A stretch of DNA of 18,023 nt, taken from contig CALCNS010000207.1 of the NCBI GenBank assembly GCA_937897315.1, positions 1 to 18,023 on the forward strand. Direction: 5' to 3'. The notes beneath the pieces are model-generated. The model was not told the DNA's origin. It searched no databases and saw only the letters and a list, made by a program, of their open reading frames with translations. A program made the position numbers and the translations under genes. Shown one piece after another: positions 2,042-9,352 of the stretch. Numbering within the stretch: the first letter of the stretch is position 1; each line of letters opens with the position of its first letter. This stretch comes from an uncultured Bacillota bacterium. Its GTDB lineage: Bacteria > Bacillota > JAAYKD01.

Positions 2042-2070
2042 TTGAATTAGCCCTTTCTTACCGTTAGTCT

Positions 2071-2095
2071 TACCGATGAAAAATTAACATCGGTA
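2071..2095. promoter_or_regulatory. Palindromic operator candidate in a divergent promoter region
   Basis: TACCGATG (2071-2078) and CATCGGTA (2088-2095) are perfect 8-bp inverted repeats separated by 9 bp. The right arm overlaps the -35 box of the rightward promoter (2084-2089) and the expected start point of the leftward promoter (about 2091). A dimeric repressor bound here would block both. No repressor gene of phage type is visible in the window, so the regulator is unknown. Confidence 0.5.
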
Positions 2096-2112
2096 ATATT
2101 ATAGTCTATAAT
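2084..2112 (+). promoter_or_regulatory. Rightward sigma-A-type promoter of the replication module
   Basis: TTAACA (2084-2089), a 17-bp spacer and a perfect TATAAT (2107-2112). Transcription would start near 2119 and read the leader at 2119-2230, the 51-aa gene, and, past the terminator at 2397-2424, the excisionase and primase genes. Confidence 0.6.
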
Positions 2113-2126
2113 AGCATTGTAAACAA
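2098..2126 (-). promoter_or_regulatory. Leftward sigma-A-type promoter of the accessory operon
   Basis: On the minus strand, TTGTTT (2126-2121), a 17-bp spacer and a perfect TATAAT (2103-2098). The start would fall near 2091, about 50 nt before the ATG at 2041. It physically interleaves with the rightward promoter at 2084-2112, so the two are likely to exclude each other. Confidence 0.55.
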
Positions 2127-2230
2127 GAGCAAATGGTAAAATCTGTTCTTGAAAATCGCGGATGTCAACCTAAAGAGGATGTTTCCCGCAACCGTGGGAG
2201 CAGTCTATCGTAAGATAGGAGGTAACGTTT
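2119..2230 (+). promoter_or_regulatory. Structured 5' leader with three hairpins ahead of a short ORF
   Basis: Three stems follow each other. CAAGAGCA/TGTTCTTG (2124-2131 with 2144-2151) is 8 bp with one G-U pair. CCCGC/GTGGG (2185-2189 with 2194-2198) has an AACC loop. CTATC/GATAG (2205-2209 with 2214-2218) has a GTAA loop of the GNRA type. The last stem shares its final two bases with the AGGAGG ribosome site (2217-2222) of the ORF at 2231, so folding could limit initiation. No known riboswitch consensus was recognised. Confidence 0.45.
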
Positions 2231-2386
2231 ATGAAGGGTAGAAAAAGGCAAAAAGAAAACCGGAAGTTGAAGCATAAGGAAGAATTGATTGACAGGCGTA
2301 ATCATTGCGGAATCAAAGATCTCACAGCCTACAACGCAATGCTCCAAATCAAAACCAATGGGAAAGCCACGATCGTCCTAAAGTAA
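2231..2386 (+). CDS. Small basic protein of unknown function (51 aa)
   Basis: ATG at 2231 with a strong AGGAGG site 8 nt upstream. The product begins MKGRKRQKENRKLKHKEELI, is very lysine/arginine rich in its first half, and ends in a short hydrophobic tail (GKATIVLK). No family was recognised. It is the first gene of the rightward transcript and is immediately followed by a rho-independent terminator at 2397. It may therefore be the only product made from most transcripts and could act as a regulatory or nucleic-acid-binding peptide; that role is inference. The good ribosome site and clean placement between leader and terminator support it being a real gene. Confidence 0.6.
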   Translation: MKGRKRQKENRKLKHKEELIDRRNHCGIKDLTAYNAMLQIKTNGKATIVLK

Positions 2387-2396
2387 ACCGGAACTT

Positions 2397-6857: not shown

Positions 6858-7019
6858 ATGGAAGAAAAGACTGTGAACATTACCGAGAAAGTAATCGGAG
6901 ACACACTATATAGGATTGAATCATCAATCAGTAGCACTGCGAAAGAAACTGCTTATGAGAAATTAAAACGCATGATCCTTAACGATGTTACCAATCAAGA
7001 AACCAAGAAGGTTTCATAG
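6858..7019 (+). CDS. tnpW: TnpW-like small transposon protein
   Basis: A 53-aa protein with ATG at 6858 behind AAAGGAG. It reads VIGDTLYRIESSISSTAKETAYEKLKRMI, matching the pattern recalled for TnpW-family proteins (a short strand pair, an S-x-T-A/S-K-E-T motif, then a helix). It sits 77 nt upstream of a TnpX-like recombinase, the same neighbour as tnpW in Tn4451-family elements. Its molecular role is not known to me. The family call rests on remembered motifs and context. Confidence 0.65.
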   Translation: MEEKTVNITEKVIGDTLYRIESSISSTAKETAYEKLKRMILNDVTNQETKKVS

Positions 7020-7096
7020 CGAAAAATAACTTGACTTCTTCACAGTAGTAAGGGAATATAGACTACCGCTTGAAGACTGTCGGGAAGGAGGAAAGC

Positions 7097-8767
7097 ATGA
7101 ACAGAAGGCAGTCTAACACTACTTTGAAGAACAACGACAAAATTACTGCTCTATACTGTAGACTCTCAAGAGATGATGAGTTGCAAGGTGAATCTAACAG
7201 CATTAAGAATCAGAAAGCTATACTACAAAAATATGCTTGTGACAACGGTTTTGTTAACACACAGTTTTTCGCTGACGACGGCTACAGTGGCACAAACTTT
7301 GACCGACCAGATTGGCAGAGACTTTTATCCCAAGTTGAAGAAGGAAATATCAGCACGATCATAGTGAAGGATATGAGCCGTCTGGGTAGAGACTACCTGA
7401 AAGTGGGTTATTATACCGAAGTGCTTTTCCCCGGCTACGACATACGCTTCATCGCCATAAACAACAACGTGGACAGTGCTAATCAGCAAGACAGTGATTT
7501 TACACCATTCCTTAACATTATCAATGAATGGTATGCTAAGGATACTAGCAAGAAAATCCGCGCAGTCTTTAAGTCAAAAGGGTTGTCGGGAAAGCCGCTT
7601 TGCACAAATCCCCCTTACGGCTACATCAAAGATCCAACGGATAAGACACACTGGATTGTTGATGAAGAAGCAGCTCAGGTTGTGCACGAAGCATTTCAAT
7701 TGTGTATGAAGGGTCATGGTCCTACACAGATTGCCAAGGAATTTATGAAACGTGGCTACAAAAATCCTACTGCTCACATAAAGGAGCTGGGTTTTAATCC
7801 ACCAGACAATCGCACCAACGCAGACGATTACACATGGGATACCAGCACTATCGCTCATGTGCTATCTCGGCAAGAGTATCTGGGGCATACAGTGAATTTC
7901 AAGACCTACCGCAAGTCCTACAAAAACAAAAAGCGAATCATGAACGACCCTTCTGAGTGGCAAATTTTCAAGAATAGACACGAGGCGATTATTAACGAAA
8001 CTGTATTTGAGGTAGTCCAGAAAATCCGCAATGGGAGACGCCGCTTAACGCCGATGGGAGAAATGCCAATGCTCTCTGGTATGCTGTTTTGTGCAGACTG
8101 TGGCAACAAGTTATACCAAGTCAGACATCGAGGATGGGATCACGACAAGGAACATTTCGTGTGTGCGACCTACCGTAAAGTCAAAGGTGGCTGCAGCTCT
8201 CACCAGATTCGCAATGTGGTGGTAGAGGAGTTACTCCTTGACAGCATTCGAAGGATAACATCTTATGCCAGGGACGACGAGGATGAATTTGTGGAGATGG
8301 TCACCAAGAAAAAGAGGAGTGACCTTGACAGAAGTATGCGGGAAAGCAAACGAGAATTAGAACAATCCCTGGCTCGCATTAATAAACTGGATGAAATAAT
8401 GCAAAGGTTATATGAGGACAATCTTGATGGCAAAATTTCAGATGAACGTTTTGCAAAGATGAACGCAAACTATGAATCTGAGCAGAATGTTCTTATAAGC
8501 AGAGTGGATGAACTGAGATCCATCATGAACGCAGAAAAGGAAAGTACAGTGGATTTAGAATACTTCTTAGCATTGGTAAGGAAGTATATAGACATCAAAG
8601 AACTTACAGCAGAGATTATTCGGGAGTTCATAGAAAAAATCTATATCCATAAAGCAGAGCACATTGACGGTAGAAGAGTACAGCGCATCAAAATCGTTTT
8701 TAACTGCATTGGCGAGGTTGATCCACTCGTTCCAGTGCCAATAACCGAAAAAGAAAAATCGGCATAG
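7097..8767 (+). CDS. tnpX: Large serine recombinase, TnpX class
   Basis: A 556-aa site-specific recombinase. The ATG at 7097 has AAGGAGG at 5 nt; an in-frame upstream ATG at 7070 lacks one. The N-terminal resolvase/invertase catalytic domain (about 15-160) has the nucleophile Ser24 in YCRLSRDD, and DGYSGTNFDRP and KDMSRLGRDYL carry the conserved active-site arginines. The recombinase domain (about 175-300) contains GKPLCTNPPYGY. A zinc beta-ribbon has C332, C335, C356 and C366. A coiled-coil and DUF4368-like C-terminus follows. TnpX proteins excise Tn4451-type elements as circles and re-insert them, with a GA dinucleotide crossover. The gene is intact and lies at the right end of the element. 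The stop codon lies at the edge of the terminator hairpin at 8756-8796. Confidence 0.9.
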   Translation: MNRRQSNTTLKNNDKITALYCRLSRDDELQGESNSIKNQKAILQKYACDNGFVNTQFFADDGYSGTNFDRPDWQRLLSQVEEGNISTIIVKDMSRLGRDYLKVGYYTEVLFPGYDIRFIAINNNVDSANQQDSDFTPFLNIINEWYAKDTSKKIRAVFKSKGLSGKPLCTNPPYGYIKDPTDKTHWIVDEEAAQVVHEAFQLCMKGHGPTQIAKEFMKRGYKNPTAHIKELGFNPPDNRTNADDYTWDTSTIAHVLSRQEYLGHTVNFKTYRKSYKNKKRIMNDPSEWQIFKNRHEAIINETVFEVVQKIRNGRRRLTPMGEMPMLSGMLFCADCGNKLYQVRHRGWDHDKEHFVCATYRKVKGGCSSHQIRNVVVEELLLDSIRRITSYARDDEDEFVEMVTKKKRSDLDRSMRESKRELEQSLARINKLDEIMQRLYEDNLDGKISDERFAKMNANYESEQNVLISRVDELRSIMNAEKESTVDLEYFLALVRKYIDIKELTAEIIREFIEKIYIHKAEHIDGRRVQRIKIVFNCIGEVDPLVPVPITEKEKSA

Positions 8768-8796
8768 CCGGTAATTAAACCAAACTATGCCGATTT
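8756..8796 (-). terminator. Bidirectional terminator between the recombinase gene and the idi operon
   Basis: AAATCGGCATAG (8756-8767) and CTATGCCGATTT (8785-8796) form a 12-bp stem with a 17-nt loop. For leftward transcripts the stem is followed by an almost unbroken U tract (complement of 8749-8760), so it is a strong rho-independent terminator for the idi end of the chromosomal operon. Rightward, the U tract is short. The left arm is the coding end of the recombinase gene, including its TAG. Confidence 0.75.
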
Positions 8797-8830
8797 ACTT
8801 CAGAGATTATGAATCCCTTTGTAGAGCCAC

Positions 8831-9352
8831 TCAATGGGTGAGCCTTTTTTGATACTTCATCACTTGAGGTGCTGCGATAATAAACCAAGGAGCAAACTGC
8901 TCGGGGTGATGTGTCAGCTCGCTTTCGAGTTCTTCAAAAGTAATCCACTTCATTTGGGATGCTTCTTCTGGATTTGCTTGAAAAGTACCACTATATTGAC
9001 CCACATAAACATGATCCAGTTCATATTCAATCAAGCCATTTTCAAACACCGCCCGATAATGAAAGGAGAACAAAGGGTGAACCGGGCATTGTATCGCTGT
9101 TTCCTCAAGTAATCTTCGCTCTACCGCCAAATCTAAAGATTCTCCTACTCGAGGATGCGAACAACAAGTATTCGCCCACAACCCGGCGGAATGATACTTA
9201 TGCTCGGCCCTTTTCTGAATCAGCATTTGGTTCCCCTGCAACAAAAACACAGAAAATGCTCGATGGAGTAACCCTTGTTGGTGCACTTTCCATTTTCCTT
9301 CCGGCCCAATCGGATGGTCTTCCAGATCGACTAAAACCAATAAATCTTCCAT
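8831..9352 (-). CDS. idi: Isopentenyl-diphosphate delta-isomerase, type 1
   Basis: A 173-aa Nudix-fold enzyme that interconverts isopentenyl and dimethylallyl diphosphate for isoprenoid synthesis in the cytoplasm. Visible marks are metal-binding H24 and H30 in VHQQGLLHRAFSVF, the catalytic-Cys region NTCCSHP (61-67), the Nudix-like helix LDLAVERRLLEETA, and the acidic pair E109 and E111 in IEYELDH that aligns with E114/E116 of the E. coli enzyme. Length fits the family, so the neighbouring element has not cut it. The ATG at 9352 lies 10 nt after the rsmG stop, with an AAAGGA site overlapping that stop, making it the last gene of the leftward operon. The alternative of a generic Nudix hydrolase is unlikely given the NTCCSHP motif. 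Confidence 0.88.
   Translation of the reverse strand: MEDLLVLVDLEDHPIGPEGKWKVHQQGLLHRAFSVFLLQGNQMLIQKRAEHKYHSAGLWANTCCSHPRVGESLDLAVERRLLEETAIQCPVHPLFSFHYRAVFENGLIEYELDHVYVGQYSGTFQANPEEASQMKWITFEELESELTHHPEQFAPWFIIAAPQVMKYQKRLTH

What the first reader, a model, noticed from the sequence alone, without database searches (positions are those of the whole stretch)
2042..8833. Minimal self-replicating element combining a TnpX recombinase, a primase-helicase with iteron origin, and a lone capsid gene
The rightward gene set xis - primase/SF3 helicase - iterons - zinc ribbon - HK97 capsid - TnpW - TnpX is compact and mostly intact. It joins replication logic known from phage satellites with movement by a Tn4451-type recombinase. 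Capsid-forming satellites normally also bring portal, protease and small terminase genes, and none is visible here. Either the element makes its own small shell around DNA delivered or packaged by another phage, or the shell has another job. Genes seen directly; the satellite interpretation is inference.
Basis: partly seen in the sequence, partly recalled or inferred. Interest (0 to 1): 0.8.

Follow-up and report, generated by a model that had tools for sequence, protein, structure and literature searches.

The report
Mobile element with a lone capsid
This is a small mobile DNA element that carries its own replication start and one virus-shell gene but none of the other parts needed to build a virus, and it belongs to a widespread bacterial family that most likely hijacks passing viruses.

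Summary
The window carries an integrated element (about 165-8832) in an uncultured Bacillota-like chromosome: a divergent gene, xis, P4-type primase-helicase, iteron origin, zinc ribbon, one HK97 capsid gene, TnpW and a TnpX-type serine recombinase. The capsid gene is no stray. Of 69 evaluable relatives found through the primase, 52 have it, 51 of them without a portal hit. 56 of 61 such capsids form one clade apart from 24 phage capsids, under purifying selection. These capsids lack the about 90-residue N-terminal (delta, scaffolding) part of their phage relatives, and no portal or protease lies beside them, while long-capsid loci found in the same way mostly have both. Several relatives sit in transcription terminators; origin words are swapped on a fixed layout. 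Best reading: a phage satellite whose delta-less capsid protein joins or redirects a helper phage's capsid assembly, as SaPIbov5 Ccm does; Ccm, however, has a delta domain. Not shown: a helper, an excised circle, packaging. New variant of a known kind.

The parts
1..154 (-). Left flank: fragment of a p3-type gene of another element of the family (97% identical to L005/L047); not part of the element itself
   Evidence: blastn
165..185 (+). Probable left end of the element (GGGTGCACTTGTTAAGGGATT), inverted relative to the right end
   Evidence: Same motif at the left ends of L001, L012, L034, L035, L037, L067; homology of the flank stops at 154; only match in the window, found in 8 of 200 shuffles
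283..1088 (-). Cargo, apparently one gene split over two frames (283-795 and 696-1088); very weak similarity to N-glycosylase/DNA lyase (0.0033, far under the cut-off)
1094..2041 (-). p3: divergently transcribed 315-aa protein with a Cys-containing C-terminus, found in many relatives
2423..2638 (+). xis: excisionase-like HTH protein
   Evidence: PF12728, TIGR01764
2666..4972 (+). Primase-SF3 helicase of P4 type, 768 aa, uninterrupted
   Evidence: TIGR01613 8.9e-45, phrog_1829 1.2e-114
4977..5195 (.). Iteron origin: GTAGCAGT words, direct then inverted, around an AT-rich stretch (judged by eye)
5374..5685 (+). Zinc-ribbon protein, 103 aa, linked to the capsid gene; model of pLDDT 87, no structural match with E <= 0.001
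5694..6638 (+). Lone HK97-fold major capsid protein without delta domain (start TTG 5694 or ATG 5700)
   Evidence: PF05065 2.7e-65; TIGR01554 matched from profile position 83 on; in-frame stop 8 codons upstream of the profile start
6840..7019 (+). TnpW-like small protein
   Evidence: PF14202 4.2e-10
7070..8767 (+). TnpX-type large serine recombinase, 565 aa, uninterrupted
   Evidence: PF00239, PF07508, PF13408, PF14287; phrog_95 2.1e-95
8812..8832 (-). Right end of the element (AATCCCTTTGTAGAGCCACTC)
   Evidence: This or a close form in 24 of 27 recombinase loci printed (L031 and L073 have a variant, L025 lacks it); sequences diverge beyond it
8833..8850 (+). Right flank: right arm and T-run of an intrinsic terminator (AATGGGTGAGCCTTTTTT), beside/overlapping the idi 3' end

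Best explanation
It is an integrated phage-satellite-type element. Steps: (1) TnpX with Xis/TnpW excises it as a circle and inserts it into the loop of intrinsic terminators, a site that costs the host little (family and, for several relatives, the site shown; reaction inferred). (2) The primase-helicase opens the iteron origin and amplifies the element (anatomy shown; activity inferred). (3) When a helper phage with a delta-domain HK97 capsid is active, the element's delta-less capsid protein enters the helper's assembly and shifts it to smaller shells that suit an 8.7-15 kb element; portal, protease, large terminase and tail come from the helper (inferred, by analogy with SaPIbov5 Ccm). The zinc-ribbon protein is a partner in most relatives, perhaps an assembly or packaging adaptor (guess from linkage only). 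Helper suppression would follow.
For: The capsid is a core gene (52 of 69 evaluable primase loci); 56 of 61 such capsids form one clade, SH-aLRT 100; dN/dS 0.06-0.19 in 13 of 13 partly overlapping pairs. The delta domain is absent: 51 of 54 genes have under 82 codons from the last in-frame stop to the profile start, while the capsid genes of 6 of 6 annotated phages read begin 82-92 codons before it. Portal or protease in 0 of 12 short-capsid loci; portal in 16 and protease in 17 of 18 long-capsid loci. Two relatives have a small terminase beside the capsid gene (L029, L030). Conserved origin layout. Mobility: L034/L035/L037 share a 7.5 kb core at 94.8-96.4% in different hosts and sites with different cargo. 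Cargo includes restriction-modification genes. Genomes with the short capsid more often also carry a long phage capsid: 6 of 12 against 25 of 336, p 0.0002, not corrected for kinship. Precedent: Ccm.
Against: No helper identified; 31 of 50 searched host genomes (many of them drafts) have no PF04860 portal. No excised junction in viral contigs or in 299 genomes. No terminal repeat in the 8 capsid contigs of viral/phage collections L081-L087 and L144. The capsid is only about 36-40% identical to the best-scoring phage capsids listed, so co-assembly is not assured. Ccm has a delta domain; these do not. No pac/cos site was sought. Only 2 of 79 interval ORFs are clear small terminases, and none was seen in the window. 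18 of 61 capsid rows lack a zinc-ribbon hit, so that partner is not universal. The one faecal virome contig (MT838964.1) is indirect evidence.
Confidence: 0.5

Rival explanations
1. The capsid protein forms the whole small shell of the element by itself, mature from the start because no delta domain has to be removed; the helper gives only portal, terminase and tail (a cfPICI stripped to the shell).
For: Its own clade. It begins about where its phage relatives continue after their extra N-terminal part. Element sizes of 8.7-15 kb fall in the 8.1-18.0 kb mean genome lengths predicted for T about 2.3 to 4 shells (PMC7762592; abstract and passages).
Against: The delta domain is the scaffold in HK97-type assembly (known biology; passages in PMC5052747 and PMC8569155 agree). 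Without it, and without a recognised scaffold gene, unaided assembly is doubtful. Ccm alone forms no capsid (PMC8569155, passage).
Confidence: 0.22
2. The capsid protein is an anti-phage weapon: a truncated subunit that poisons phage capsid assembly and protects the host; the element itself moves in another way (for example conjugation of flanking DNA, or transformation).
For: A delta-less subunit is a plausible dominant negative (inference); cargo includes restriction-modification; ccm expression lowers helper titres 10^3-10^4-fold (PMC5052747, passage); long phage capsids are more frequent in carrier genomes.
Against: Two relatives couple the capsid gene to a small terminase, which speaks for packaging. 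A replication origin and recombinase travel with it. No relaxase family among the window ORFs scanned.
Confidence: 0.16
3. The shell is an encapsulin-like compartment with a metabolic or DNA-storage job, the zinc-ribbon protein being its cargo.
For: Lone HK97-fold gene with a closely linked small gene in 43 of 61 capsid rows.
Against: The sequence family is the phage PF05065/TIGR01554 family, best solved match the RcGTA capsid; it travels with a replication gene (a primase piece in 10 of 12 short-capsid loci with only about 1.5 kb of flank); small terminase in some relatives; zinc-ribbon gene missing in 18 of 61.
Confidence: 0.06
4. The capsid gene is a prophage remnant without function.
For: No other virion gene seen nearby.
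Against: dN/dS 0.06-0.19 in 13 of 13 pairs; recurrent gene order and a clade of its own.
Confidence: 0.02

Closest known systems
cos-type SaPIs with Ccm (SaPIbov5), Staphylococcus
   Same: Integrated element with one HK97 capsid homologue; [quoted passage not shown] passages). Own replication gene in SaPIs is recalled
   Different: Ccm keeps an 87-residue delta domain; here it is missing. Serine recombinase (TnpX) where SaPIs have a tyrosine integrase (recalled), zinc-ribbon partner, other hosts. In a profile search of solved structures chain 7rwz_B matched (7.8e-8); no second 7rwz sequence was listed up to 0.01. That 7rwz is the SaPIbov5 procapsid and chain B the phi12 capsid is recalled, with the chain's 402 residues agreeing
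Capsid-forming PICIs (cfPICI)
   Same: Satellite-type element with its own capsid gene
   Different: cfPICIs are said to make their own capsids (PMC11389934, passages), with portal, protease and small terminase genes (recalled); none of these here
Tn4451/Tn4453 TnpX transposons (recalled)
   Same: TnpX-type serine recombinase with DUF4368, plus TnpW
   Different: No resistance or mobilisation gene recognised; replication module and capsid gene instead; several relatives target terminator loops
P4 phage satellite
   Same: P4-family primase-helicase (TIGR01613) followed by repeated origin words
   Different: P4 has no major capsid gene (PMC7762592, passage) and a tyrosine integrase (recalled)
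Full siphophages of gut Clostridia (NatCom phages, Ca. Heliusvirales) and streptococcal phi1207.3
   Same: Best-scoring annotated phage capsids, about 36-40% identity
   Different: Their capsid genes start 82-92 codons earlier and lie after protease genes and, in most, portal genes

Membership tests
cos-SaPI / Ccm satellites | Lone HK97 capsid homologue in an integrated element with its own replication gene | tested here: met
cos-SaPI / Ccm satellites | Capsid homologue with N-terminal delta domain | tested here: not met
cos-SaPI / Ccm satellites | Tyrosine integrase (recalled) | tested here: not met
   Window has a serine recombinase; some relatives have a tyrosine integrase (L013)
cos-SaPI / Ccm satellites | Packaged by a helper phage through a shared cos site | not tested
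   No helper known
cfPICI | Own capsid, portal, protease and small terminase genes (recalled) | tested here: not met
   Only the capsid gene is there; small terminase in 2 relatives
TnpX transposons (Tn4451 group) | TnpX-type large serine recombinase | tested here: met
TnpX transposons (Tn4451 group) | GA dinucleotide at the crossover (recalled) | tested here: inconclusive
   TC (GA on the other strand) at the right end of the window and of several relatives, but CC, AC and others elsewhere
TnpX transposons (Tn4451 group) | Mobilisation gene tnpZ (recalled) | tested here: not met
   No relaxase family in the ORFs scanned in the window
Complete prophage | Portal, terminase, protease and tail genes | tested here: not met
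Encapsulin | Encapsulin-family shell protein with cargo | tested here: not met
   Its only Pfam match is PF05065 and its only strong NCBIfam match TIGR01554
Phage satellite (any) | Transfer in particles of a helper phage | not testable with these tools
   Needs induction and virion sequencing

The most novel reading that the evidence does not exclude
An old, widespread lineage of satellites in Bacillota and neighbours whose only virion gene is a 'pre-matured' capsid protein without delta domain. It cannot scaffold itself and so must join the helper's procapsid, setting shell size and excluding the helper's genome, in most members with a family-specific zinc-ribbon adaptor; the elements hide in transcription terminators and exchange origin words, recombinases and defence cargo.
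Probability: 0.4. Interest if true: 0.8.

Novelty: new variant of a known kind. Interest (0 to 1): 0.64.

Why it matters
If true, capsid hijacking by a lone capsid homologue, which I know only from staphylococcal satellites, would be a common and old way of life in gut and anaerobic Bacillota (12 of 348 sampled genomes had a short capsid; 5 of those 12 were already known carriers). The delta-less protein would be a natural test of what the HK97 scaffold domain is for and of how capsid size is set. It might also account for some of the small circular gut genomes with capsid genes reported without explanation (PMC7762592, PMC8530359; not tested). The terminator-loop target and the swapped origin words are easily tested general features.

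Tried and rejected
Remnant hypothesis: rejected by selection and phylogeny. Adjacent prophage: not supported, with only about 164 nt seen beyond the left end. Hidden delta domain upstream: rejected for 51 of 54 genes; in the other three (L003, L005, L024) the open upstream frame overlaps the zinc-ribbon gene. Capsid structure prediction with 30 sequences failed (pLDDT 42) and was not used; a deeper alignment (A3) served only for the sequence search. The zinc-ribbon model is good (pLDDT 87) but has no match with E <= 0.001 in PDB or BFVD. Search for an excised junction: 0 in viral contigs, 0 of 299 genomes; it was an exact consensus pattern that diverged ends such as the window's would not fit. 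Terminal repeats: none in 20 contigs. Plasmid collection: no near DNA match; capsid relatives in 243 plasmid records, all below 60% identity. MT838964.1 is the only one of 50,697 phage records with this zinc-ribbon protein and the only one with a primase match of 60% or more. It is labelled faecal, Mexico. The Mexican virus-like-particle study PMC8361208 (passages and key resource table seen) fits in sample type, scaffold names and 4 kb cut-off, but I found no accession link, so it is not used as proof. Rows dropped: L006, L008, L020, L040, L052, L057, L060, L062, L069, L077, L078 as too short; from the tree L017, L042, L059, L063, L080 (partial or split), L144, L064, L065 and five loci taken as repeats of earlier ones (L164, L165, L167, L169, L175), which do count among the 12 short loci; 24 of the 103 interval ORFs were not in the 79 scanned; L025 was printed but left out of the 26.
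Full report
What is there. The window holds a dnaA-region end of a chromosome (dnaA, rnpA, yidC, jag, mnmE, mnmG, rsmG recognised by eye; idi; MnmE), and to its left an integrated element. Reading rightwards the element has xis, a 768-aa P4-type primase-helicase, an iteron region, a 103-aa Cys4 protein, an HK97 capsid gene, TnpW and a TnpX-type serine recombinase; a 315-aa gene (p3) reads leftwards, and a split cargo gene lies beyond it. 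The nearest named MnmE relatives are at most 48% identical, nine closer ones (64-77%) have no name, so the host is an uncultured, Bacillota-like lineage.

Ends and target. Of 27 recombinase loci printed, 24 share a right end that stops abruptly after AATCCCTAAG..GCACCC or a close form; L031 and L073 have a variant and L025 lacks it. The inverse motif, GTGC..CTTAGGGATT, marks left ends in L001, L012, L034, L035, L037 and L067; the same pattern also hit four places I do not take for ends (L004 2194, L009 18807, L023 13924, L058 10970). In the window the right end is at about 8832 and the left motif at 165-185 (one match; 8 of 200 shuffles have one), which gives about 8.7 kb; five elements with both ends measure 13.7-15.2 kb. 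Just outside the right end a run of four or more T lies within 28 nt in 21 of 26 loci, against 839 of 5200 random stretches. Joined flanks fold as terminators in L037 (-29.7 kcal/mol), L001 (-24.8) and L035 (-18.4); L012 (-7.3) and L034 (-5.8) are weak. In relative L155 the two flanks of L037's element lie about 320 nt apart, with an intact terminator (GCCCC...GTGTGGGG and a T-rich tail) beside other repeats and a 5-N gap. So at least some of these elements sit in the loop of intrinsic terminators. The window's right flank is such a terminator arm. Its left flank is not the other arm but a piece of another family member's p3 gene; a rearrangement or an assembly join is possible.

A family, not a one-off. 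Scanning one genome per species with the primase alignment gave 80 loci (the best 80 of 89 kept). 11 were too short; of 69 evaluable, 52 have the capsid between 5 kb before and 6 kb after the primase end, some of them split or partial (L017, L059, L063, L080). One of the 52, L064, carries portal and large terminase and is of another kind. 17 have no such capsid match: some carry a relaxase after the primase (L070, L072, L074, L079), some look like prophages (L041 and L043 have a large-terminase hit), L065 has portal and large terminase, and in L045 other DNA follows the zinc-ribbon gene where the capsid gene would be. The order p3-xis-primase-zinc ribbon-capsid-TnpW-TnpX recurs, for example in Anaerovibrio (L001), Anaerobium (L002), Pelotomaculum (L005) and Syntrophomonas (L047). 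The recombinase can be replaced by a Tn916-type tyrosine integrase (L013) or by two serine recombinases in a row while the capsid gene stays.

The capsid gene is alone. Profiles were built from portals of five phages and L064, proteases of six phages, and large terminases of four phages and L064. As a control on the 56 viral contigs L088-L143 they find portal in 45, large terminase in 31, protease in only 2, so that protease profile is narrow. In the window and L001-L087 portal hits occur only in L064 and L065, large-terminase hits only in these and in L041 and L043, protease hits nowhere. In a capsid-anchored sample of 348 genomes, 51 matches fall into two groups: 13 above 300 bits with frames of 259-340 aa, and 38 of 219-271 bits with frames of 355-418 aa. 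Of 30 of these loci read, with about 1.5 kb of flank, 0 of 12 short ones has portal or protease and 10 have a primase piece (four of them weak, 45-58 bits); of 18 long ones 16 have portal and 17 protease. Five of the 12 repeat earlier loci. Of 79 ORFs scanned between primase and recombinase, 2 (L029, L030) are small terminases by PF05119 and phrog_83; one more has a weak Terminase_5 hit (8e-4); none of the 22 Pfam families hit, and none of the 25 of 38 PHROG families shown, is a portal, protease, capsid or large-terminase ATPase-nuclease family.

The capsid protein starts without a delta domain. The capsid genes of all six annotated phages read begin 82-92 codons before the point where the satellite profile starts to align. 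In 51 of 54 satellite genes the previous in-frame stop is closer than 82 codons, in 27 within 20; the window has 8. That these N-terminal residues are the delta/scaffold domain is inferred from position and from HK97 biology.

Age and constraint. In a quick maximum-likelihood tree, with long-branch warnings, 56 of 61 satellite capsids form one branch (SH-aLRT 100, length 0.65) and the 24 phage capsids fall together (78); five others (L014, L016, L018, L029, L055) lie outside, so the kind may have arisen twice. dN/dS is 0.06-0.19 for the capsid in 13 pairs and 0-0.25 for the zinc-ribbon gene in 12; some loci serve in more than one pair. The zinc-ribbon gene occurs in 45 loci of the set W and L001-L144, 44 of them with the capsid; 43 of 61 capsid rows of the tree have it and 18 do not; it is in none of the 24 phage loci, short flanks allowed for.

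Replication. Directly after the primase stop lie repeated words around an AT-rich stretch (layout judged by eye). The layout is kept while the word changes: GTAGCAGT, AGTGACAG, GTGGTCG, GCGGTCGC, GGTAGGAC, TTAGTGAA and others in 34 loci; in L025, L051 and L067 the top 8-mer does not exceed the shuffles. This resembles rep-linked iteron origins of satellites and plasmids (recalled).

Mobility and cargo. L034, L035 and L037, in three host records, share a 7.5 kb core (94.8-96.4%) and the left 115 nt (93-97%) but have no match between their flanks, and their cargo differs. Of ten cargo-side proteins that I picked, seven match restriction-modification models strongly (L004, L009, L012, two in L035, two in L037), one weakly matches PD-T4-6 and two match nothing; only the L012, L034, L035 and L037 ones lie within mapped ends.

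Mechanism. The nearest described case I found is Ccm of SaPIbov5: a lone capsid homologue that occupies pentamers of helper phi12 procapsids, turns prolate into T=4 shells, makes no capsid alone and suppresses the helper (PMC8569155 outline, abstract and passages; PMC5052747 passages). I infer a similar role here, with the difference that the delta domain is missing. Against this: no helper, no excised junction, no particle evidence, and 31 of 50 host genomes without a PF04860 portal. For it: carrier genomes have long phage capsids more often, 6 of 12 against 25 of 336, and 4 of 7 against 25 of 336 when genomes already known as carriers are dropped, without correction for kinship.

Print. Ten searches of the open library, of which I saw the listings, brought no description of this family; subscription papers and preprints were not covered. 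PMC7762592 and PMC8530359 report small circular gut genomes with HK97 capsid genes (passages); whether these are the same elements was not tested.

Noticed in passing
window 1-154: 97% identical to part of the p3 gene of elements L005/L047; the element's left flank is thus inside another family member, while its right flank is chromosome: nested insertion, deletion or assembly join.
   Followed up: partly
window 8833-8850; L037 1322-1366 and 16328-16372: Insertion target looks like an intrinsic terminator; relative L155 has the unoccupied site.
   Followed up: yes
window 4977-5195 and the first 420 nt after the primase in 33 other loci: Origin words differ between relatives on a fixed layout, as if origin specificity is exchanged together with the primase.
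   Followed up: partly
L070, L072, L074, L079: Relatives with the same type of primase but a relaxase (PF03432 or PF01076) after it and no capsid: phage and conjugation modules may be alternatives.
   Followed up: partly
window 283-1088: Cargo gene apparently split over two frames.
   Followed up: no
window 5289-5318 and 6728-6757: 30-nt inverted repeat (70%) flanking the zinc-ribbon/capsid pair; may be chance.
   Followed up: no
L039 17207-17890 and its cluster of 17 ORFs: Amidoligase-like gene (phrog_2443 for this one member); other members of its cluster lie next to the capsid gene in several relatives (L030, L038, L051, L053, L061, L075).
   Followed up: no
L144 (MT838964.1): The only phage-collection record with this zinc-ribbon gene; 96.6% identical to the Blautia element L013 over 4.7 kb.
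   Followed up: partly
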